64,000 bases of DNA from the NCBI GenBank assembly GCA_950295325.1, contig OX485806.1, positions 9,550,001-9,614,000 on the forward strand, written 5' to 3'. Shown here one piece after another: positions 575 to 48,190 of the stretch. Numbering within the stretch: position 1 is the stretch's first letter; each line of letters begins with the position of its first letter. This stretch comes from Polytrichum commune. Taxonomy: Eukaryota > Streptophyta > Polytrichopsida > Polytrichales > Polytrichaceae. The notes under the pieces were generated by a model that made no database searches, had not been told where the DNA came from, and saw nothing but the letters and a program-made list of their open reading frames with translations. Both the position numbers and the translations under genes were made by a program.

Positions 575-1021
575 CTCATCTGCAGACCACAAGCAAGCTC
601 TTACGCCTGCTCGATGGACATGGTCGTCACACTTCCAAAGGAAGATAAGATAAAGCATGCATATCAGAAAAATAAACTAAAAAAAATAGCTTAGATTTTG
701 AGTTTTTTGATTTTGTATCCTCTTATTTGAAGAAGCAACATCCTTAAAAACAAATAGAGCAGATGGTCCAACTAGTGACCTTTTTCGTTTCATGGAAGTC
801 GTGCATTCTGGCTTGATTTTTGAAGAGTACGGAGTAGACTGGCTCGATTTATATTATTTGTTTAAAAAGAAATAAAACTCCTCCAGGTTTTGACTGGCAT
901 TTGGGGTCCTCTTTCCACAAGGTGCTTCCATCTCCGACTAAAGAGAGCTTAACTTCTTCGTCGTTGTCGTCGTCATCATTCATCAGCAGTTTGGAAGACG
1001 AGGGACCCAACAGGTAACCAG

Positions 1022-1391
1022 AGGTTATTCTTCAATCCAATCGTGTTCTGGTTGGGAGTTGGTTGTTTTGCATAAAATACCTTGAATCATGTTCGGTAAG
1101 ATTTCGGTACATGCTTGGACTCAGTGTGAAGGTTTGATCGAAGATTCAAGAACTTTTTTCTAAATCGGACCTCGGTTCATTGGGAGATAAACTCAATTTG
1201 GCATGCCAAGAGGTGCTTAAATGAGTTTGCACCCAATGAAACTGATATGGAGAGTTCTTTGGTCAAACCTCCCTACCGACTCCAAGCGTGCATGATGCAC
1301 CAAAATCTTCCCACCAAAGACGGTCCAAAGAATTTTATGCAAAACAACCAACTCCCGACCAACACACGGTTGGATTGAAGGATATTAACTC
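1022..1391. repeat. foldback element, about 165-bp arms, copy 1
   Basis: The left arm (AGAGGTTATTCTTCAATCCAA, then GGGAGTTGGTTGTTTTGCAT) is repeated in reverse complement at the right end (ATGCAAAACAACCAACTCCC...TTGGATTGAAGGATATTAACT). The arms meet around 1200 with ATTGGG/CCCAAT near the centre. The arms are well matched but not perfect, as in an old foldback MITE; a transcript would make a long hairpin. Confidence 0.7.
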
Positions 1392-1819
1392 TGATATATA
1401 TACTTGAGCTCAAGTCGCTCATTTTGGATCAACTAGTACACTTGCTTCCAATTCGTAAAACGCGTTGAAGAGAATGCACACACATGTCGGGATATTTGCA
1501 ATGGAATGCCAATCGCCGAAAGCACCTAGTCAAAGATCTCCCCGGATGCTGGTTGATAATGAAGAAGTAAGGATAGCGACTGAGTTGGCTCAAATTTCTC
1601 TCCATTCACTGGGACGAAGCCCTGCACTTAATTAGGAAAGTGGTAATGTGGTGGATAGAATGAATTGCCATGGCAGATCATAGTGCAGTAGACCCCTAAT
1701 TAATTACTGGGATGGCCATTTTAGCTTGCTGCTTCGAATAGCAAAGACAAAGAGCAAGACATGGATGACGCATGCATGTGATGGGAGGACTGAAGCAAGA
1801 GACGAGTAATGAGGTCCTC

Positions 1820-2292
1820 GAGATTTTTGGTCATAACTGGTTGAGATCTTAGTGTTTCCTAAGTCCCACCAGTGACATGTTCACATCTTTCGGGTTTTCT
1901 TTCATTTTTTTGAGGTATATTCTTTAAATTCCTCTAAAATGATGGGTAATTTTCCTGAATTTTTGAACTTCAACCAGTTAATTTCTCAAACTTAACCGGT
2001 TCATCTCTAAACTAGTGGTCAGTTCTCCCCATTCATTGCTCAATTGCCTCTTCCATCTCCACTTCAGTGCAGTGAGATTTTTGGTCATAACTGGTTAAGA
2101 TCCTAGTGATTCCTAAGTCCCACCAGTGACATGTTCACATCTTTCAGGTATCCTTTCATTTTTTTGAGGTATATTCTTTAAATTCCTCTAAAATGATGGG
2201 TAATTTTCCTGAAGTCTTGAACTTCAACCGCTTATTTCTCAATCTCAACCGGTTCATCTCTAAACTAGCGGTCAGTTCTCCGCATTCATTGC
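1820..2292 (+). repeat. head-to-tail dimer of family A elements, copy 1
   Basis: Two family A bodies, beginning GAGATTTTTGGTCATAACTGG at 1820 and 2074, follow each other with about 254-bp spacing, separated by a shared 'CTCTTCCATCTCCACTTCAGTGCA' type linker. The terminal CARTG is degraded, so this is a tandemised relic, not two independent insertions. Confidence 0.65.
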
Positions 2293-3659
2293 TTGAATGC
2301 CTCTTCCATCTCCACTTCAGTGCAGTGCAAAATGTAGGGATGCTAGCCAACAGTGGATGATCATCTGGTAGACCATTTGATACCGCAACAAATGGAATTG
2401 CCGGTCTGCAAGGAAGAAGGCTTCAGAGGCAAATGGACACTCATAAGATATACATATATACACTCGAAATAAATCACGTGCTGTTGCATACTCAGCATAG
2501 TTGGTTGCTCATCAATTATGTATTCCTTTCTTTCAACATATGCATGGTCGAGCACATTACAAATTGTTAGCAAAGTGCGAGATGAATCCTCGGGAGGTGG
2601 ACTCTTCATACCACATTCAAACTAATGTGAGTATAAGAAGGGGTATTATGTGAGGCATTAGCGTACATAGTATACATAAGGGAGAGGTATTTTTTTTTTT
2701 CCTAGTGTGTGCATCTAAAAAGGCTAGTAATTTTCTTTGAAGTAAAGGTTGACGTACAAAGAGGGCTCTAAAGTTCAAAGAAAACAATTGACACTAGGTG
2801 TGTTGGTTTTATCCGATTCGCGTTTTCATCCATTGTTGTCATATGGTCGTAGTCCTTGATGGCTACCATGCATGTTCTTGTCATGGTTTGCATTTGGTTC
2901 TAGGTTTTGAAAGGCTCTTGGAGCCCTCATGGGCTTCCTTGAGGTTTGTTTTCCAGATCGTGGCTAAGTGGTTGTGCTCTTGGATTTATTTGTTTGATAT
3001 AAGTGTCGAGTTACATGTTATGAATGAAAAACATTCAATGTATTTCTTGTTGGAAAGTGAAAATGATTTTAATGTGTAATAAAGGCCTATTTAATTCTCG
3101 GTGTTATATTTTGTATATGTATTGGAGGCATTTATCCCAATCATACTGGAAAGCTTAGTATAAATACATGAGTCCATTTTCTAACATGTTGTTAGTATTT
3201 CTTTTGAAATACAAGATCAACTTTAATCATTCGGCGCAGGTGTGTTGGACTAGCTATCTACCTACGGTATTCTAGGTTCAATAGTCAACATGATTGGAGA
3301 GACCCTATATGACCATGCAATGAGCGTGAACCTTCACTTTGATAGTGAAGATATTTATATGAGCTCAAAAAAATATGAGAAAAGTGGCCACATCCTCGAT
3401 TTGGATTCTCTAACCATCTCGTACTGATCGTGTGATTCATATTTTAAGAGATGTGGGCTAGTCGGTAAATGTAACCATTTGAGACCTTACATGCCACACA
3501 CATGTGTTCCCTATCACCACAAATTGTAGCCACCACAGGTCCTCCCACATCATATATAAGTAAGTGAATGTGTTTTTCCCTGGCATCTCACATTGGGACA
3601 ATTCTTGTAATAATCTCACTCTTTACAGCCAGCCAGCTGCCCACTTCAAGGGGGTTCAA

Positions 3660-4375
3660 TGATCAGGGAGAACCGACTGCTAGTCACAGATGAATGAACA
3701 GGTTGAGTTTGAGAAATAATCGACTGAAGTTCACGAGTTCAGAAAAACTACTGATCACCTTTGAGGAATCTATGGAATAAACCTCAAATTAATGAAAGAA
3801 ATCCTGAAACATCACAACATGAAACTGGTTGGAACACTAGGATTTTGACTGATTATGCCCAATAATCTCCCTGAACACTGAGGGGTTTTTCAGCAGGTTG
3901 AGTTTGAGAAATAATTGACTGAAGTTCACGACTTCAGAAAAATTACTGATCACCTTCGAGGAATCTATGGAATCTACCTCAAATTAATAAAGAAAACCTG
4001 AAACATCACAACATGTAACCGGTTGGAACACTAGGATTTTGATCGATTATGCCCAATAATCTCCCCGAACACTGAGGGTTTTTTTCAACAACAGGTTGAG
4101 TTTGAGAAATAATCGACTGAAGTTCACGACTTCAGAAAAATTACTGATTACCTTCAAGGAATCTATGAAATATACCTCAAATTAATAAAAGAAATCCTGA
4201 AACATCACAACATGAAACCGGTTGGAACGCTAGGATCTTGACCGATTATGCCCAATAATCTCCCTGAACACTGAGGGGTTTGTCAACAACAGGTTGACTT
4301 TGAGAAATAATCAACTGAAGTTTACGACTTCAGAAAAATTACTGATCATCTTCAAGGAATCTATAGAATCTACCT
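3660..4375 (-). repeat. family A-derived satellite array 1 (~197-bp unit)
   Basis: Units beginning CAGGTTGAGTTTGAGAAATA occur near 3702, 3897, 4095 and 4292 (spacing 195-198 bp). Each unit is most of a reverse-oriented family A element plus a TTTTTCAACAACA joiner. The last unit is cut short where the next 3.6 kb copy begins. The MITE has become a small satellite. Confidence 0.75.
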
Positions 4376-4643
4376 CAAATAGAGCAGATGGTCCAACTAG
4401 TGACCTTTTTCGTTTCATGGAAGTCGTGCATTCTGGCTTGATTTTTGAAGAGTATGGAGTAGACTGGCTCGATTTTTATTATTTATTTAAAAAGAAATAA
4501 AATCCTCCAGGTTTTGACTGGCATTTGGGGTCCTCTCTCCACAAGGCGCTTCCAGCTCCGACTAAAGAGAGCTTAACTTCTTCGTCGTTGTCGTCATCAT
4601 CATTCATCAGCAGTTTGGAAGACGAGGGGCCCAACAGGTAACC

Positions 4644-5014
4644 AGAGGTTATTCTTCAATCCAATCGTGTTCTGGTTGGGAGTTGGTTGTTTTGCATAAA
4701 ATACCTTGAACCATGTTCGGTAAGATTTCGATACATGCTTGGAGTCAGTGTGAAGGTTTGATCGAAGATTCAAGAACTTTCTTCTAAATCGGACCTCGGT
4801 TCATTGGGAGATAAACTCAATTTGGCATGCCAAGAGGTGCTTAAATGAGTTTGCACCCAATGAAACTGATATGGAGAGTTCTTTGGTCAAACCTCCCTAC
4901 CGACTCCAAGCATGCACGATGCACCAAAATCTTCCCACCAAACACGGTCCAAAGAATTTTATGCAAAACAACCAACTCCCGACCAACACACGGTTGGATT
5001 GAAGGATATTAACT
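4644..5014. repeat. foldback element, copy 2
   Basis: Same foldback as at 1022-1391, carried along by the 3.6 kb duplication. The arms retain their complementarity with only a few private substitutions. Confidence 0.7.
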
Positions 5015-5440
5015 CTGATATACTTGAGCTCAAGTCGCTCCTTTTGCATCAACTAGTACACTTGCTTCCAATTCGTAAAACGCGTTGAAGAGAATGCACA
5101 CACATTTCGGGATATTTGCAATGGAGTGCCAATCGCCGAAAACACCTAGTCAAAGATCTCCCCGGATGCTGGTTGATAATGAAGAAGTAAGGATAGCGAC
5201 TGAGTTGGCTCAAATTTCTCTCCATTCACTGGGACGAAGATCTGCACTTAATTAGGAAAGTGGTAATGTGGTGGATAGAATGAATTGCCATGGCAGATCA
5301 TAGTGCAGTAGATCCTCTAATTAATTACTGGGATGGCCATTTTAGCTTGCTGCTTCAAATAGCAATGACAAAGAGCAAGACATGGATGACGCATGCATGT
5401 GATGGGAGGACTGAAGCAAGAGACGAGTACTGAGGTCCTC

Positions 5441-5912
5441 GAGATTTTTGGTCATAACTGGTTGAGATCCTAGTGTTTCCTAAGTCCCACCAGTGACATG
5501 TTCACATCTTTCGGGTTTTCTTTAGTTTTATTGAGGTATATTCTTTAAATTCCTCTAAAATGATGGGTAATTTTCCTGAAATCTTGAACTTCAACCAGTT
5601 AATTTCTCAAACTCAACTGGTTCATCTCTAAACTAGCAGTCAGTTCTCCCCATTCATTGCTCAAATGCCTCTTCCATCTCCACTTCAGTGCAGTGAGATT
5701 TTTGGTCATAACTGGTTAAGATCCTAGTGTTTCCTAAGTCCCACCAGTGACATGTTCACATCTTTCGGGTTTTCTTTCGTTTTTTTGAGGTATATTCTTT
5801 AAATTCCTCTAAAATGATGGGTAATTTTCCTGAAGTCTTGAACTTCAACCACTTATTTCTCAAACTCAACCGGTTCATCTCTAAACTAGCAATCAGTTCT
5901 CCCCATTCATTG
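5441..5912 (+). repeat. head-to-tail dimer of family A elements, copy 2
   Basis: Duplicate of the dimer at 1820-2292 inside the second 3.6 kb unit. Same linker, same order, slightly different substitutions. Confidence 0.65.
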
Positions 5913-7279
5913 CTTGAATGCCTCTTCCATCTCCACTTCAGTGCAGTGCAAAATGTAGGGATGCTAGTCAACAGTGGATGGTCATCTGGTAGACCATTCG
6001 ATACTGCAACAAATGGAATTGCCGGTCTGCAAGGAAGAAGGCTTCAGAGGCAAATGGACACTCATAAGATACACATATATACACTCGAAATAAATCACGT
6101 GCTGTTGCATACTCAGCATAGTTGGTTGCTCATCAATTATGTATTCCTTTCTTTCAACATATGCATGGCCGAGCACATTACGAATTGTTAGCAAAGTGCG
6201 AGATGAATCCTCGGGAGGTGGACTCTTCATACCACATTCGAACTAATGTGAGTGTAAGAAGGGGTATTATGTGAGGCATTAGCGTACATAGTATACATAA
6301 GGGAGAGGTATTTTTTTGTCTTTCTAGTGTGTGCATCTAAAAAGGCTAGCAATTTTCTTTGAAGTAAAGGTTGACATACAAAAGAGGGCTCTAAAGTTCA
6401 AAGAAAAAAATTGACACTAGGTGTGTTAGTTTTATCCGATTCGCGTTTTCATCCATTGTTGTCATATGGTCGTAGTCCTTGATGGCTACCATGCATGTTC
6501 TTGTCATGGTTTGCATTTGGTTCTAGGTTTTGAAAGGCTCTTGGAGCGCTCATGGGCTTCCTTGAGGTTTGTTTTCCAGATCGTGGCTAAGTGGTTGTGC
6601 TCTTGGATTTATTTGTTTGATATAAGTGTCGAGTTACATGTTATGAATGAAAAACATTCAATGAATTTCTTGTTGGAAAGTGAAATTTATTTTAATGTGT
6701 AATAAAGGCCTATTTAATTCTCGGTTTTATATTTTGTATATGTAACTGGAGACATTTATCCCAATCATACTGGAAAGCTTAGTATAAATACATGAGTCCA
6801 TTTTCTAACATGTTGTTAGTATTTCTTTTGAGATACAAGATCAACTTTAATCATTCAGCACAGGTGTGTTGGACTAGCTATCTACCTACGGTATTCTAGG
6901 TTCAATAGTCAACATGATTGCAGGAACCCTATGTGACCATGTAATGAGCGTGAACCTTCACTTTAATAGTGAAGATATTTATATGAGCTCAAAAAAATAT
7001 GAGAAAAGTGGCCACATCCTCAATTTGGATTCTCTAACCATCTCGTACTAATCGCGTGTTTCATATCCTAAGAGAAGTGGGCTAGTCGGAAAATGTAACC
7101 ATTTGAGACCTTACATGCCACACACATGTGTTCTCTATCACCACAAATTGTAGTCACCACAGGTCCTCCCGCATCATATATAAGTAAGTGAATGTGTTTT
7201 TCCCTGGCATCTCACATTGGGACGATTCTCGTAATAATCTCACTCTTTACAGCCAGCTGCCCACTTCAAGGGGGTTCAA

Positions 7280-8092
7280 TGATCGGGAGAACCGACCGCT
7301 AGTTACAGATAAATGAACAGGTTTAATTTGAGAAATAATCGACTGAAGTTCACGACTTCAGAAAAATTACTGATCATCTTCGAGGAATCTATGGAATAAA
7401 CCTCAAATTAATAAAGAAAACCTGAAACATCACAACATGTAACCGGTTGGAACACTGGGATCTTGACTGATTATGCCCAATAATCTCTCCGAACACTGAG
7501 GGGTTTTTCAACAACAGGTTGAGTTTGAGAAATAATCGACTGAAGTTCACAACTTCAGAAAAATTACTGATCACCTTCGAGGAATCTATGGAATCTACCT
7601 CAAATTAATAAAAGGAATCCTGAAACCTCACAACATGTAACCGGTTGGAACACTAGGATTTTGACTGATTATACCCAATAATCTCCCCGAACACTGAGGG
7701 ATTTTTCAACAACAGGGTGAGTTTGAGAATTAATCGACTGAAGTTCAGAAAAATTACTGATCACCTTCAAGGAATTTATGGAATCTACCTCAAATTAATA
7801 AAAGAAATCCTGAAACCTCACAACATGTAACCAGTTGGAACACTAGGATTTTGACTGATTATGCCCAATAATCTCCCCGAACACTGAGGGATTTTTCAAC
7901 AACAGGGTGAGTTTGAGAATTAATCGACTGAAGTTCAGAAAAATTACTGATCACCTTCGAGGAATCTATGGAATCTACCTCAAATTAATAAAAGAAATCC
8001 TGAAACCTCACAACATGTAACCGGTTGGAACACTAGGAGTTTGACCGATTTTGCCCAATAATCTCCCCAAACACTGAGGGGGTTTTTCAACT
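7280..8092 (-). repeat. family A-derived satellite array 2 (~195-bp unit)
   Basis: Four units start near 7319, 7517, 7715 and 7905. The last two share a small deletion after CTGAAGTTCAG, so they arose by a local duplication after the 3.6 kb copying. Orientation is reverse relative to the forward A dimers of the same block. Confidence 0.75.
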
Positions 8093-12437: not shown

Positions 12438-15400
12438 TGTACACCGCTATGAGCCCAAAATGGTTGCTCATATTTGTTTTATGTTTAGAATTTACTTAGA
12501 ATTACATTTGAAGTCATTATTGTAACCTCAAAAAGGATTAAAAAGAGTGAGGCTTGGTGTGGATTTATGTTTTAGGCCTTAGGCTTATTTAGTGTGGTTA
12601 ATTAAAGGATTAGTGTAAGTAGGGGTTGAAATTTAGAACATAGTGGTTGTGGGTTAAAGTAAGGGAAGGGACCTCGGGGTTTAAGTGTTTGAATTGGGAC
12701 CTATCGTGTTGGTTTTAGGGGGTGAGGGTTTAGTGGATAGGATGAGGTTCTATTATGTAGGAGAGGGGTAAGGGGTTAAGCTCTCTCGGGTTTTGTGTGT
12801 GGCTCTCTCTTCTAGTTGAGCGGGGAGGAGCTCAAGGAGCTCGGAGGTCGGCATGAATGAGCTGCTGGTTTGAGGTTTGAGCTCGGGAGAGCTGTTGGGT
12901 TGAGGCTTGAGCTCGGAAGAACTGCTGGGTTGAGGCTTGAGCTCGGAAGAATTGCTGGGTTGAGGCTTTCAGCTCGGAATGAGCTGTTGGTTTGAGGCTT
13001 GAGCTCGGAATGAGCTGCTGGTTTGAGGTTTGAGCTCAGGAGAGTTGCTGGTTTGAAGCTTGAGCTCGGAATAGCTGCTGGTTTGAGGCTTTGAGCTCGG
13101 AATGAGCTGCTGGGTTGAGGCTTTGAGCTCGGAATGAGCTGCCGGTTTGAGGCTTGAGCTCGGAATGAGCTGCTGGTTTGAGGCTTGAGCTCGGAATAGC
13201 TACTGGTTTGAGGTTTGAGCTCGGGAGAGCTGCTGGGTTGAGGCTTGACCTCGAAAGAACTGCTGGTTTGAGGTTTGAGCTCGGGAGAGCTGCTGGGTTG
13301 AGGCTTGAGCTCGGAAGAACTGTTGGGTTGAGGCTTGAGCTCGGAAGAACTGCTGGGTTGAGGCTTGAGCTCGGAATAGCTGCTGGGTTGAGGCTTGAGC
13401 TCGGAAAAACTGTTGGTTTGAGGCTTTGAGCTCGGAATGAGCTGTTGGTTTGAGGCTTTGAGCTCTTATATGGTGGGCTAGCTAATTAGGAAAAGGGGGG
13501 AAGATTAAACTAGGAATTTAACTCATTAGTGAATTAGGGGGGGGGTGGCCTAAAGTGCAAGAGGGTGGCATAAGGGAATGAGCTTTGAGTAGGGATTTGA
13601 GGGTTGGTTTGTAAATTAGTGTAGGAAGAAGGGAATAAATAGAGAAGAGCATTTTTCAATGCTTGTACTCGTATTATGGAATAAACTGGTGTGCAAGAGT
13701 TGATGGGAAATGTAATGGATTTTAATGACGTTGGGAAGAGGGAGTTATGTGAACATGAATGTGATCCCCATGCCCTCACCCGGACTACGACGCATAAGGA
13801 TGGGTGGTTTGGCCTCACAACCGCCAAGAGGAGCATCAGAGACGATGAGAACCGCAAGGACGAGCATCGGAGGGGAGACAAGGCCGAGTGAATGAGAGAG
13901 AGGGAGAGAGCCGAGGGGCGAAGAGGCTACGTGGAGACCATGGGAGCAAACCCAAATCATCAAAGCCCGGACAGGCGGGTAAAGATAAAGGACCGGTTGA
14001 AGACCCAGCAGGGCCGGGTACTTAAGGACAGGGGGAAGCCGGCCGAAGGAGACCGAGAGGCGGCTTCGAAGTGAACAATTAGGTTAGGGCTTAAGCATAG
14101 GGAACGAGTTTAAGCCATCGGAACGGACATGGACAATAGTAGAATAGGATAGTAGGAACTAGTAAATACGTAGTGTCTTTTGGAAGAGTAGACGAAAGGA
14201 CATGCCCAAGGAATGATAATTCCCTTGGATGAACACAAACTACTTCAACCACCGTAAATGAATGTATGCATTTTGGAATGGATGGAGTACACGGATGTAG
14301 CCGAATCCCCCTAGCACATCTGGGAAAGCAAAGAATTACACCAAATGCACTCCACAAGTACATCCAATTATAAACGTGATCATTACTGTAAATAGATCCA
14401 CCTGGTGTAAATTTGACTGCAGCTACATTCAGGGATAAAAATAGCCGATTCATACATATGGCATTAGGGGAATGAGACCTAACCGCCATATCAATTAATT
14501 GGTAGATATTAGAACTTATTTAAGGAGGCACAAAGGAGACCTATAGGAGCTCATTTTCATCGATCAAATCCACGTGAGCGCTGCGAAGCTTATCGGGAGC
14601 GAACGACCGCTGCAAAGCATTTCGGGAGCGCATGATTGCCGCAAGACTTTTCAAGAGAACAAAGCTTGGACTTCAAGAAGATAAAGATTTTCGCCGAAAT
14701 CCGAGAAGACTTGAAGACAAAGAAAATTGAAGAAAATAGTTAAAGAGGATTTCGAAGGCTAAACGAGTTGAAGACAAGAAGACTAAGGATTCTCACGAAC
14801 CTTCGAAGATGAAGGATTGAAGAACATCGGAAGACTAAGGGTTTTCACAAACCTTAGAAGATTTAAGTTCTCTCCTAACCTTTTGAAGACCCGGAAACTT
14901 TAGGAAGAGGAGATTTGAGATCTCTAACACTTGAATTCCTCAAGAGAAACGAGTGGATCAAAGTGACAAGAAAAGTTGGAATCGGAGTTACAAATTCATC
15001 AAGTATCATCCAACTAAGTTTAAAACTAAAAACTCAACATTCTCACCATTGTCTAGACGGAATCTTTGGATAAGTATTGAGAGATATCGAATGTACGGGA
15101 AGATGAGAACATATCCGGAATATTGTTCAAACACTTTGATATAAAGAGATTGATGTTACATTGAGAAATTAATGCATGAATGAGAAACTCTTTTACTTGA
15201 ATATTCTCTAAGTGAGTAAACTTACATTAGTGAAGGAGTATGCTTGAAATCCATAACTCTCTTAGTGAAACATTCTTGGAATATTGAATGGAATAAGACT
15301 AATTATAAGTCATTCAAACCATGAAAGAGTTTGGAATAAGTCTCCTAGATAGTATACATAAGAATGGTGTTCTTCTAAGAACACTTAACCTTGACATTAG

Positions 15401-46031: not shown

Positions 46032-46425
46032 GAGCATCCTCAGTCGGTCTAGGTAAAGCTCACTGCAAACCAAGACCTATCTTGCTTAAAATTGCTCAAA
46101 ATTTAGAGGGAGTGCACCAAATCTTGCTTAAAATGGACAGATCCTCCCACACTCCCTCTAAATGTCAAAAATTTGGAGGGAGTGTGGGAGGATCTTTCCA
46201 TTTTAAAGCAAGATTTGGTGCACTCCCTCTAAATTTTGAAAATGTGGTGTTTTCAATGAGGGATTTCACCTACGTCAAATTTTTACAATTCTTTTTTCTT
46301 GAGAAATATCTCACGTTTATTTAGGTGTGCTTCTAATGATGGTAATTTCAGTTTCTAATTTTAGGTCAGTCAAAAGATAGGTTTTGGTTTGCAGTGAGCT
46401 TTACCTAGACCGACTGAGGATGCTC
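46032..46425. mobile_element. PIF/Harbinger-type (Tourist-like) MITE with 50-bp terminal inverted repeats
   Basis: 394 bp flanked by TTA on both sides (46029-46031, 46426-46428). The terminal repeats 46032-46081 and 46376-46425 match at 49 of 50 positions and start GAGCATCCTCAGTCGGTCTA. A TTA/TAA target and GAGCATC-type ends are typical of Harbinger MITEs. The high arm identity implies recent insertion. It contains an internal hairpin (next entry). Confidence 0.85.
46098..46237. repeat. internal 66-bp-arm hairpin, miRNA-precursor-like
   Basis: Arms 46098-46163 and 46171-46237 pair with two mismatches and one single-base bulge around a 7-nt loop (GTCAAAA). Each arm also carries AGAGGGAGTG and CACTCCCTCT, so a smaller alternative fold is possible. 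It sits between the MITE's own terminal repeats, giving a hairpin within a hairpin. A transcript through it would be an efficient Dicer-like substrate. No miRNA is asserted. Confidence 0.7.
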
Positions 46426-47367: not shown

Positions 47368-47379
47368 GCTCTGATACCA
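47368..47379 (-). other. primer binding site, initiator tRNA-Met type
   Basis: The minus strand reads TGGTATCAGAGC, the standard plant LTR-retrotransposon primer binding site, three nucleotides inside the LTR end TGTAACA. Just downstream on minus, ATGGAGAGTTTGGAAGAAAG (MESLEERIARA) at about 47354 could be the start of a gag frame, but it soon reaches a stop. Confidence 0.75.
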
Positions 47380-47382
47380 ATT

Positions 47383-48190
47383 TGTTACAAACCTCTCACC
47401 GGTTGGTAGTTGGTTTCATGACAACAATATCTCAAAGTAAAGAATTGAAACAAACACAATTTATTTCTTCCTTTAAGTACAATCCGAGACCAAGTAAGTT
47501 TTGGTCAAAGAAGCTCTACCACCCGACCATAGGAGAGAGAGCTAACAATCAAAAAGCCCCTCTCTCCTCCCCCGAGCTTCCTCTTATGCCAAAGGCACTA
47601 CTTTTACTTTCTATCTTTACATATAGTAAAAGTATTCTATTCATAGCTCTATCTTCTAGTTCTATTATGAATCTTTTATCTTTGGTTCTTCTCCAACCTT
47701 CTTCAAGTTGGAACTGTTCAACTCCAATTTAGTTTATCCATTCCATCTTCTAGTTGAAACTGTCTAATTCCAACTAGTTCATCCATTCATTCTTTTAGTT
47801 GGAATTGTCTAGTTCCAACTAATTCATTCATTCATCTTCCAGTTGGAACTATCTAATTCCAACTAGCTTTATCTAATCATTGAGAGTTGTCTAACTCCAA
47901 TGAATAACATTCATCTTTCCAAATATGGAGTGGTCTAACTCCGTGCACCTCATCGAGAGTTGTCTAACTCACGTGCACATGTTATCAATTGGAATAGTCT
48001 AATTCCAATGCACTAAATGCGGAGCTGTCTAACTCCAGTGCACATGTTGTCAATCTGGAGTTGTCTTACTCCTATCCATTCATCTTCAACTGAGAGTTGT
48101 CTAGCTCTCATCTTTCTCTGCTTACACACTGGCACATGTAGTTAATTAGAATATTCCTTAATAATTCTAGTTACATTACAGGTTGCTACA
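47383..48190 (-). mobile_element. LTR of a retrotransposon, interior truncated
   Basis: On minus it runs TGTAGCAACC ... GGTTTGTAACA (about 808 bp) and is followed by the primer binding site, so this is a 5' LTR on minus. Only about 330 bp of interior remain before a MITE at 47049. There is no gag-pol and no second LTR in the window. Copia versus gypsy cannot be decided. It contains the eleven-hairpin array at 47708-48110. Confidence 0.7.
47708..48110. repeat. array of eleven short hairpins with a conserved 8-nt loop
   Basis: Stem-loops at 47708-47727, 47750-47777, 47796-47821, 47841-47864, 47877-47903, 47927-47942, 47957-47970, 47988-48009, 48021-48036, 48057-48072 and 48091-48110. Loops on plus are CTGTTCAA, CTGTCTAA, TTGTCTAG, CTATCTAA, TTGTCTAA, TGGTCTAA, TTGTCTAA, TAGTCTAA, CTGTCTAA, TTGTCTTA and TTGTCTAG. 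Stems differ (TAGTTGGAA/TTCCAACTA, ATTGGAA/TTCCAAT, GGAG/CTCC, TGAGAG/CTCTCA) but stay complementary, perfectly or with one mismatch. Spacers are T/CATT-rich or GTGCAC-containing. Function unknown. Confidence 0.75.

What the first reader, a model, noticed from the sequence alone, without database searches (positions are those of the whole stretch)
47708..48110. Eleven hairpins with a constant 8-nt loop and covarying stems inside an LTR
Seen directly: eleven inverted repeats in 400 bp, each with an 8-nt loop close to YTGTCTAR (minus strand YTAGACAR). The stems are not copies of one sequence: TAGTTGGAA, ATTGGAA, GGAG and TGAGAG are each answered by their complement. Changes on one arm matched by changes on the other while the loop stays fixed is the classic sign of selection on structure, at RNA level or as DNA cruciforms. 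In LTR coordinates they fall in the first 480 bp on the sense strand, where U3 or the transcript start would be. I know of no described plant LTR feature of this kind. A protein binding site, an RNA packaging or dimerisation signal, or a transposase-independent amplifier of the repeat are all possible.
Basis: partly seen in the sequence, partly recalled or inferred. Interest (0 to 1): 0.8.

Follow-up and report, generated by a model that had tools for sequence, protein, structure and literature searches.

The report
Hairpin-repeat array in a retrotransposon LTR
A family of plant jumping genes with very recent copies carries about eleven short mirror-image (hairpin-forming) repeats just upstream of its likely promoter; such arrays were described before in another class of plant jumping genes, so this looks like a second case of a known kind rather than something wholly new.

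Summary
Eleven inverted repeats lie in the upstream (U3-like) part of a 798-bp LTR (window 47383-48180, minus strand) of a Ty3/gypsy chromovirus (gag, protease, integrase and chromodomain pieces in relatives). The unit is better described as an AGAC centre with arms (core GGARTTAGACARYTCC). The core occurs 1278 times in the 408-Mb genome, against 3 for the reversed control. Arms match their own partner better than other units' arms in the window copy, in a very young copy, and among 14 non-redundant unit types (0 of 20,000 permutations), so covariation between unit types is supported. Ongoing selection on stems is not shown: in 30 sister LTRs, 78 stem changes were unmatched and 1 matched, and arms vary about as much as spacers and loops. 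No consistent RNA-strand signal was found. A very young LTR also has 11 units. The closest precedent is the palindromic repeated motifs upstream of the TATA box in Sirevirus (Ty1/copia) LTRs; here the CGG-CCG core, CpG island and repeated PPTs were tested and not found. Most likely a dyad-symmetric cis-regulatory array, a new variant of a known kind. Its function is inferred.

The parts
47383..48180 (-). LTR (798 bp, TGTAATG...TGTAACA), 5' LTR of a mostly deleted chromovirus copy
   Evidence: shared ends among genome copies; three 3'-LTR loci (L012, L013, L019) are preceded by PPT AGGGGGAG-AT
47368..47379 (-). primer binding site TGGTATCAGAGC just after the LTR
   Evidence: sequence; same in L008 and L018. 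Only about 60 bp of internal sequence match L008 and L018 in this copy
48091..48110 (-). hairpin 1 TGAGAGCT-AGAC-AACTCTCA
48057..48072 (-). hairpin 2 GGAGTA-AGAC-AACTCC
48021..48036 (-). hairpin 3 GGAGTT-AGAC-AGCTCC
47988..48009 (-). hairpin 4 ATTGGAATT-AGAC-TATTCCAAT
47954..47973 (-). hairpin 5 CGTGAGTT-AGAC-AACTCTCG (one mismatch)
47927..47942 (-). hairpin 6 GGAGTT-AGAC-CACTCC
47877..47903 (-). hairpin 7 TCATTGGAGTT-AGAC-AACTCTCAATGA (1-nt bulge)
47841..47864 (-). hairpin 8 AGTTGGAATT-AGAT-AGTTCCAACT
47795..47822 (-). hairpin 9 TTAGTTGGAACT-AGAC-AATTCCAACTAA
47750..47777 (-). hairpin 10 CTAGTTGGAATT-AGAC-AGTTTCAACTAG (one mismatch)
47706..47727 (-). hairpin 11 TTGGAGTT-GAAC-AGTTCCAACT (diverged centre)
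47620..47626 (-). TATA-like CTATATG, 94 bp downstream of the centre of hairpin 11; inferred promoter, so that the array would lie in U3
   Evidence: position and presence in other copies; the promoter role is inferred

Best explanation
The eleven units are a cis-regulatory array in the U3 of a Ty3/gypsy chromovirus LTR. Each unit is a dyad-symmetric motif (core GGARTT-AGAC-ARYTCC) repeated every 29-46 bp upstream of a TATA-like box. It is probably read as double-stranded DNA by a host DNA-binding factor that drives or tunes transcription of the element. The array grows and shrinks by gain and loss of whole units. The matched outer arms come from inheritance of old, individually symmetric unit types; what keeps them symmetric (structure or arm copying) is not settled. 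Shown: the position in the LTR, the element type, the repeated core, arm matching between unit types, unit gain and loss, and very recent copies with the array present. Inferred: the promoter position, the binding factor, and the effect on transcription.
For: Core found 1278 times in the genome against 3 for the reversed pattern. Array located at about 9-60% of the LTR, 94-120 bp upstream of a TATA-like box in the eight loci whose printed match lay in the LTR. Five LTR pairs at a fixed distance have 0, 0, 1, 0, 0 mismatches over 803-806 bp; one LTR of each pair shows the same ten units by one search expression, and an eleventh is seen in the one (L051) scanned with a broader expression. Unit gain or loss in L005, L014, L021, L023, L024, L025 and L029 of the 30 aligned copies. 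Inner arm positions carry more information than outer ones in 20 unit clusters, although many loci were picked by the core motif. Precedent: palindromic motifs clustered upstream of the TATA box in Sireviruses (PMC2829016), and Tnt1 BII boxes, said to bind defence-induced factors (PMC3316501, passages).
Against: A site for a DNA-binding dimer does not need matched arms 5-10 bp out, yet outer arms match (pairs 5-10 of L051, 46 of 66 against 35.6 swapped, 4 of 20,000; with 7 distinct units 361 of 20,000). The A/G variant at pair 3 goes with its T/C partner in 1210 of 1278 units, whereas free mixing would be expected if each half-site were read alone, although shared descent can explain it. No transcription, binding or methylation data are available here.
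Confidence: 0.5

Rival explanations
1. The hairpins work as RNA near the 3' end of the element's transcript (U3 of the 3' LTR), for example in 3'-end processing, packaging or protection from decay. Selection acts on pairing, with the AGAC loop recognised.
For: Arms covary: on 20 unit clusters the covariation score is 0.330 against 0.191 in shuffles (0 of 500) and 0.08-0.20 in slid versions. RNA folding z = -7.5 on the sense strand. At pair 9, G.T (37) exceeds A.C (10), p = 1e-4, as a sense-strand RNA would allow, though the 37 are not independent events.
Against: In one search the number of pairs changed on both sides (8 of 10) is reached by 34 of 500 shuffles and by one slid version. At pair 3 there is no G.T excess (29 against 39 A.C, p = 0.27); in 30 sister copies G.T 28 against A.C 34; in C1 units with at least 4 of 6 pairs, 24 against 26. 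The antisense strand folds as well as the sense strand. Matched double changes are nearly absent among sister copies (1 against 78), and 0 of 528 units in the AGTTGG context carry the double change at pair 3.
Confidence: 0.17
2. The symmetry is a mutational by-product. Palindromic units duplicate by slippage or recombination, and template switching between arms during reverse transcription or replication copies one arm onto the other, so stems stay matched without selection.
For: Arrays vary in unit number between copies. Matched changes sit between unit types, not in scattered recent changes. Arms match beyond a plausible binding site. That template switching occurs at such arms is from general knowledge, not from a call.
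Against: The core is shared by unit types whose outer arms differ widely, and very young copies keep the array, which neutral turnover alone does not predict. No direct footprint of arm copying was found beyond one candidate (L017, unit 9).
Confidence: 0.2
3. The array matters mainly to the host. Transcribed palindromes seed hairpin-derived small RNAs that guide silencing of the family, as proposed for maize Sireviruses.
For: Neighbouring units are inverted copies of each other and can pair over about 25 nt (I1 and I2; fold). PMC10760457 (passages) reports more small RNAs in such regions of maize Copia elements and cites a Sirevirus study for it.
Against: No small-RNA data here. [quoted passage not shown] It would not explain why the element keeps the array.
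Confidence: 0.1

Closest known systems
Palindromic repeated motifs (RM) of Sirevirus (Ty1/copia) LTRs, PMC2829016
   Same: Many copies of a short dyad-symmetric motif with a short centre, clustered over a few hundred bp in the upper half of the LTR, upstream of a TATA box.
   Different: Host element is a Ty3/gypsy chromovirus, not copia; no CGG-CCG signature; CpG-poor (observed/expected 0.29 in the array) rather than a CpG island; one PPT-like tract in the 1.5 kb before the 3' LTR in 3 of 3 loci looked at, rather than several. The paper calls the RM Sirevirus-specific against 'classic' copia elements; gypsy elements were not part of the passages I read.
Maize Sirevirus LTR palindromes as small-RNA hotspots (cited as Bousios et al. 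2016 in PMC10760457)
   Same: Palindrome cluster in an LTR, able to form hairpins (passages).
   Different: The 2016 paper is not held and was not read. The motif there (CACCGGACNNNGTCCGGTG) is different. Small RNAs were not tested here.
Tnt1 U3 boxes (box I, BII boxes)
   Same: Symmetric or protein-binding motifs in a plant LTR promoter (PMC2829016 and PMC3316501, passages).
   Different: Tnt1 is a copia element (general knowledge); no sequence comparison with its boxes was made.
[quoted passage not shown]
   Same: The sentence says such arrays recur in different TE families and organisms.
   Different: The five cited papers were not looked up, so whether one concerns a Ty3/gypsy LTR is not known to me.
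LORE1 (Reina-clade chromovirus of Lotus), PMC2832683
   Same: Chromovirus with an active LTR and U3 methylation (passages).
   Different: The words 'palindrom' and 'tandem' do not occur in its main text; no sequence comparison made.

Membership tests
Ty3/gypsy chromovirus | Chromodomain at the C-terminal end of integrase, next to the 3' LTR | tested here: met
   PF24626 (SH3_Tf2-1) then PF00385 Chromo (E 3.9e-7) in a piece of L019; Integrase_H2C2 E 3.8e-20 in a piece upstream of it
Ty3/gypsy chromovirus | Ty3-type gag and protease | tested here: met
   Ty3_capsid E 3.9e-13, Retrotrans_gag E 5.9e-11, RVP_2 E 2.9e-13 in pieces of L018
Ty3/gypsy chromovirus | Placement in the chromovirus clade by reverse transcriptase tree, and subclade | not tested
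   Reverse transcriptase was not looked at; I had no reference set of named elements
Sirevirus | Ty1/copia gene order and proteins | tested here: not met
   Integrase and chromodomain lie last, before the 3' LTR; Ty3-type gag
Sirevirus | Several identical PPTs AGGGGGAG upstream of the 3' LTR | tested here: not met
   One GGGG[AG] tract in the 1.5 kb before the 3' LTR in 3 of 3 loci (L012, L013, L019). The PPT and the AT/TG junction themselves are the same
Sirevirus RM | Eight or more palindromic motifs in the LTR, upstream of the TATA box | tested here: met
   11 units in the window LTR and in the young LTR L051, upstream of CTATATG; that CTATATG is a TATA box is inferred
Sirevirus RM | CGG-CCG core and CpG island | tested here: not met
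   Core is GGARTT-AGAC-ARYTCC; CpG observed/expected 0.29 in the array of the window copy and 0.19 in L051
Structured RNA under selection | Covariation between arms beyond descent | tested here: inconclusive
   Strong between unit types, 1 matched against 78 unmatched changes among sister copies, none at pair 3 in one unit class
Known RNA family | Rfam match at gathering score | tested here: not met
   6 matches at E <= 1 in the LTR, none reaching its gathering score
Tnt1 BII-type enhancer | Binding of host factors and stress-responsive transcription | not testable with these tools
   Needs binding and reporter assays

The most novel reading that the evidence does not exclude
A chromovirus lineage has independently evolved a constant-centre hairpin array in U3 in which the pairing itself, as extruded DNA or as RNA, is the recognised feature. 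If so, palindromic U3 arrays would be a convergent solution in the two great LTR superfamilies of plants, read by a structure-specific host or element protein.
Probability: 0.22. Interest if true: 0.7.

Novelty: new variant of a known kind. Interest (0 to 1): 0.45.

Why it matters
Palindrome-rich LTR regions have been discussed as a place where plant retrotransposons and host silencing meet, but the worked-out cases in the papers I looked at are Ty1/copia. A clear case in a Ty3/gypsy chromovirus with very recent copies, many unit types sharing a core, and matched arms would give a second system. It could help separate three ideas that are confounded in Sireviruses: protein site, structure, and small-RNA source. 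Here the array is CpG-poor, which takes the CpG-island explanation away. The family has copies with identical LTRs, so promoter and activity tests should be feasible.

Tried and rejected
Sirevirus membership was the first idea after the literature search and was rejected when the flanking protein pieces proved to be Ty3-type gag and protease and integrase with chromodomain. A miRNA or other known RNA: Rfam gave only sub-threshold matches. Sense-strand RNA signature (G.T over A.C mismatches): positive at pair 9 only, absent at pair 3, among sister copies and in the C1 units, so not used as support. Recurrent compensation at pair 3 within one unit class: 0 of 528; the one double change seen (L017) has another inner letter and so falls outside that pattern. 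Plain hairpin density as evidence: two other places in the window score the same. With only 7 distinct units of one young LTR the swap test is not significant for pairs 1-8 (1445 of 20,000) and modest for pairs 3-8 (348) and 5-10 (361 of 20,000). Paper searches on palindromes or hairpins in such LTRs: (listings and starts of abstracts; one search found no paper; several listed papers, such as PMC6911290 and PMC3601003, were not opened). None of the listed titles or abstract starts reports hairpin arrays in chromovirus LTRs, but most subscription papers are not held. Searches (Tnt1; template switching) served other questions. PMC11656987 was searched for six words and did not help. Other plant species were not looked at: G000 has no relatives here, and I did not scan viral contigs, genome contigs or metagenome contigs.

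Choices made before counts. The LTR search scored only 40 of 701 candidates, so 46 matches is a lower bound. The 20 loci L031-L050 were picked by eye from the first 100 listed places (all on C1) of the 1278 motif hits, so each holds at least one canonical core; their units were then selected on YTAGAY only, with the right arm free (130 units). For the clusters, 398 units from L001-L050 were used; for those, 499 units from L001-L060. Units 2 and 11 of the window copy do not fit that expression; all eleven window centres were placed with hand-picked strings. In one search only pairs whose commonest state was Watson-Crick were counted. In one search all 20 clusters of two or more members were used, including at least two that do not form hairpins. 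The G-C count of 456 at pair 3 is by subtraction (1278 - 754 - 29 - 39). The G-C count of about 500 at pair 9 is an estimate: 528 less the units changed at pair 3, which are 5 of the 100 listed there.

Full report
What was checked. The window stretch 47698-48120 was read and scanned for inverted repeats. The units are centred on AGAC (AGAT in unit 8, GAAC in unit 11). The arm positions nearest the centre are TT/AA-like and pair only in some units; further out the arms pair to different lengths. Perfect 8-nt-loop stems of 5 bp or more number 5 in the array, against a mean of 0.46 and a maximum of 4 in 1000 dinucleotide shuffles; loop 10 gives the same number. Folding is far below shuffles on both strands (z -7.5 and -8.4 as RNA; -8.1 as DNA, sense strand).

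What the element is. The genome search with the LTR gave 46 matches in 407.8 Mb (40 of 701 candidates scored, so a lower bound), of which 30 were cut out. In L012, L013 and L019 the LTR is preceded by AGGGGGAG-AT, and in L001, L008 and L018 it is followed by the primer binding site. Stop-free pieces of the flanks match Ty3_capsid, Retrotrans_gag and RVP_2 after the 5' LTR (L018), and Integrase_H2C2, SH3_Tf2-1 and Chromo before the 3' LTR (L019). This is a Ty3/gypsy chromovirus; its subclade was not tested. The window copy keeps its 5' LTR and about 60 bp of internal sequence that match L008 and L018.

It is recent. In the list (100 of 107 hits shown) ten pairs of hits lie 5301-5303 bp apart in the same orientation. 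Five of these ten pairs were fetched: their LTRs are identical over 803, 804, 804 and 806 bp in four pairs, with one mismatch in 806 bp in the fifth. One LTR of each of the five pairs (L051, L053, L055, L057, L059) was scanned with the YTAGAY expression, and each shows the same ten units in the same order, apart from a few single-letter differences. A broader scan of L051 finds an eleventh unit of the TAAGAC form, with spacings 36, 36, 30, 35, 30, 32, 36, 46, 46, 46.

The motif genome-wide. GGARTTAGACARYTCC occurs 1278 times; the same pattern read backwards occurs 3 times. At the third pair from the centre the counts are A-T 754, G-C 456 (by subtraction), G.T 29, A.C 39. The association is extreme (odds ratio 304), but it may largely reflect inheritance of unit classes: within the AGTTGG context the double change is found 0 times among 528 units. 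At the ninth pair A-T is found 107 times, G.T 37 and A.C 10, against an estimated 500 G-C.

Do the arms match beyond relatedness? In the window copy own arms form 69 of 88 Watson-Crick pairs, against 58.8 when arms are swapped between units (p = 0.0048). In 130 units from 20 loci, chosen without looking at the right arm, own arms give 556 of 780, against 430 (swapped among all) or 447 (swapped within a locus), 0 of 5000 in each; these units include orthologous copies, so the excess is overstated. After collapsing 398 units from 50 loci to 14 clusters at 75% identity (two members or more), own arms give 4.21 of 6 against 2.77, 0 of 20,000; the other thresholds agree (at most 2 of 20,000). In one young LTR the 11 units give 57 of 66 against 45.1 for pairs 3-8 (14 of 20,000), and 69 of 88 against 59.1 for pairs 1-8 (200 of 20,000). 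With 7 distinct units the counts are 348 (pairs 3-8), 361 (pairs 5-10) and 1445 of 20,000 (pairs 1-8, not significant). On 20 unit clusters the named 10-pair hairpin has a covariation score of 0.330, against 0.191 in shuffles (0 of 500) and at most 0.197 in slid versions; 8 of 10 pairs change on both sides, but 34 of 500 shuffles and one slid version reach that number too, and the tool warns that related sequences can exceed shuffles without structure. Taken together, the arms do covary between unit types.

Results against a strong structural reading. Among the 30 aligned LTRs, at pairs whose commonest state is Watson-Crick, 1964 cells are unchanged, 28 are G.T, 34 A.C, 16 other mismatches, and 1 is a matched double change (L017, unit 9). 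Diversity is 0.042 in arm positions 3-6, 0.049 in 7-8, 0.063 in the inner two positions and in the centre, and 0.059 in spacers, with errors that overlap; it is 0.035 in the LTR upstream of the array and 0.089 downstream of the TATA-like box. Copies that decay after insertion are expected to look like this whether or not the active lineage is constrained, so this is no disproof; but it is not support. Mismatch types give no consistent strand signal. The young copies themselves carry mismatched inner pairs and some broken outer pairs.

Spread of the LTR family. In the 20 C1 loci the array part of the window LTR finds a match in 20 of 20 (they were chosen by the motif), and the part downstream of the array in 14 of 20 (75-86% identity); the 6 others may be truncated or more diverged.

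Most likely mechanism. The array lies 94-120 bp upstream of a TATA-like CTATAT in the eight loci whose printed match lay in the LTR. The expression ACTATAWRT was found in 36 of 60 loci, a rough count: some loci are short, and in L008 the first match lay outside the LTR. Inner arm positions are more conserved than outer ones in the 20 clusters, with the caveat that many loci were picked by the core. Unit number varies between copies. I take the array to be a cis-regulatory cluster of dyad-symmetric sites acting in U3, probably through a host DNA-binding factor. The factor, the promoter and the effect are inferred. The matched outer arms are the part this explanation leaves open: structure (as DNA or RNA) or arm copying during replication would each account for them.

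Comparison with the known. PMC2829016 (sections 6 and 9 read, other passages searched; [quoted passage not shown] the LTR copies cluster upstream of a TATA box. They have a CGG-CCG core in all but one element (Tnd-1) and coincide with CpG islands, and the motif is called absent from classic copia elements. PMC10760457 (passages; [quoted passage not shown] it cites a 2016 Sirevirus palindrome study that is not held, and in one sentence five further papers on arrays of sometimes palindromic repeats in cis-regions of various transposable elements, which I did not look up. The present array resembles the Sirevirus motifs in position, number and symmetry, but the element fails Sirevirus membership: wrong superfamily, single PPT, CpG-poor, different core. 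I saw no report of such an array in a chromovirus in searches (listings and starts of abstracts, an open-access library only).

Noticed in passing
L007 (G000:C3:57205090-57205359, minus) beside the LTR at C3:57205362-57206171: A 270-bp inverted piece of the hairpin array lies directly next to an LTR copy, a natural inverted repeat of array sequence that might act as a hairpin-RNA source.
   Followed up: no
L012, L013, L019, just before the 3' LTR: The PPT and attachment junction AGGGGGAG-AT/TG of this chromovirus is letter for letter the one that PMC2829016 describes as typical of Sireviruses.
   Followed up: partly
L010 and L016 (G000:C5:52369928-52370731 minus and 52376875-52377682 plus): Two LTR copies about 6 kb apart in opposite orientation.
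   Followed up: no
window 46096-46239: A 144-bp self-complementary stretch (92% identity to its own reverse complement), possibly a small terminal-inverted-repeat element.
   Followed up: no
window 751-7985: Two tandem blocks of about 3.6 kb, 95% identical, each with internal repeats.
   Followed up: no
window 12855-13465: Tandem array with self-matches at steps of about 30 bp.
   Followed up: no
L005, L014, L021, L023, L024, L025, L029: Gain or loss of whole hairpin units between copies; in L014, L021 and L023 the deletion joins sit inside the shared core.
   Followed up: partly
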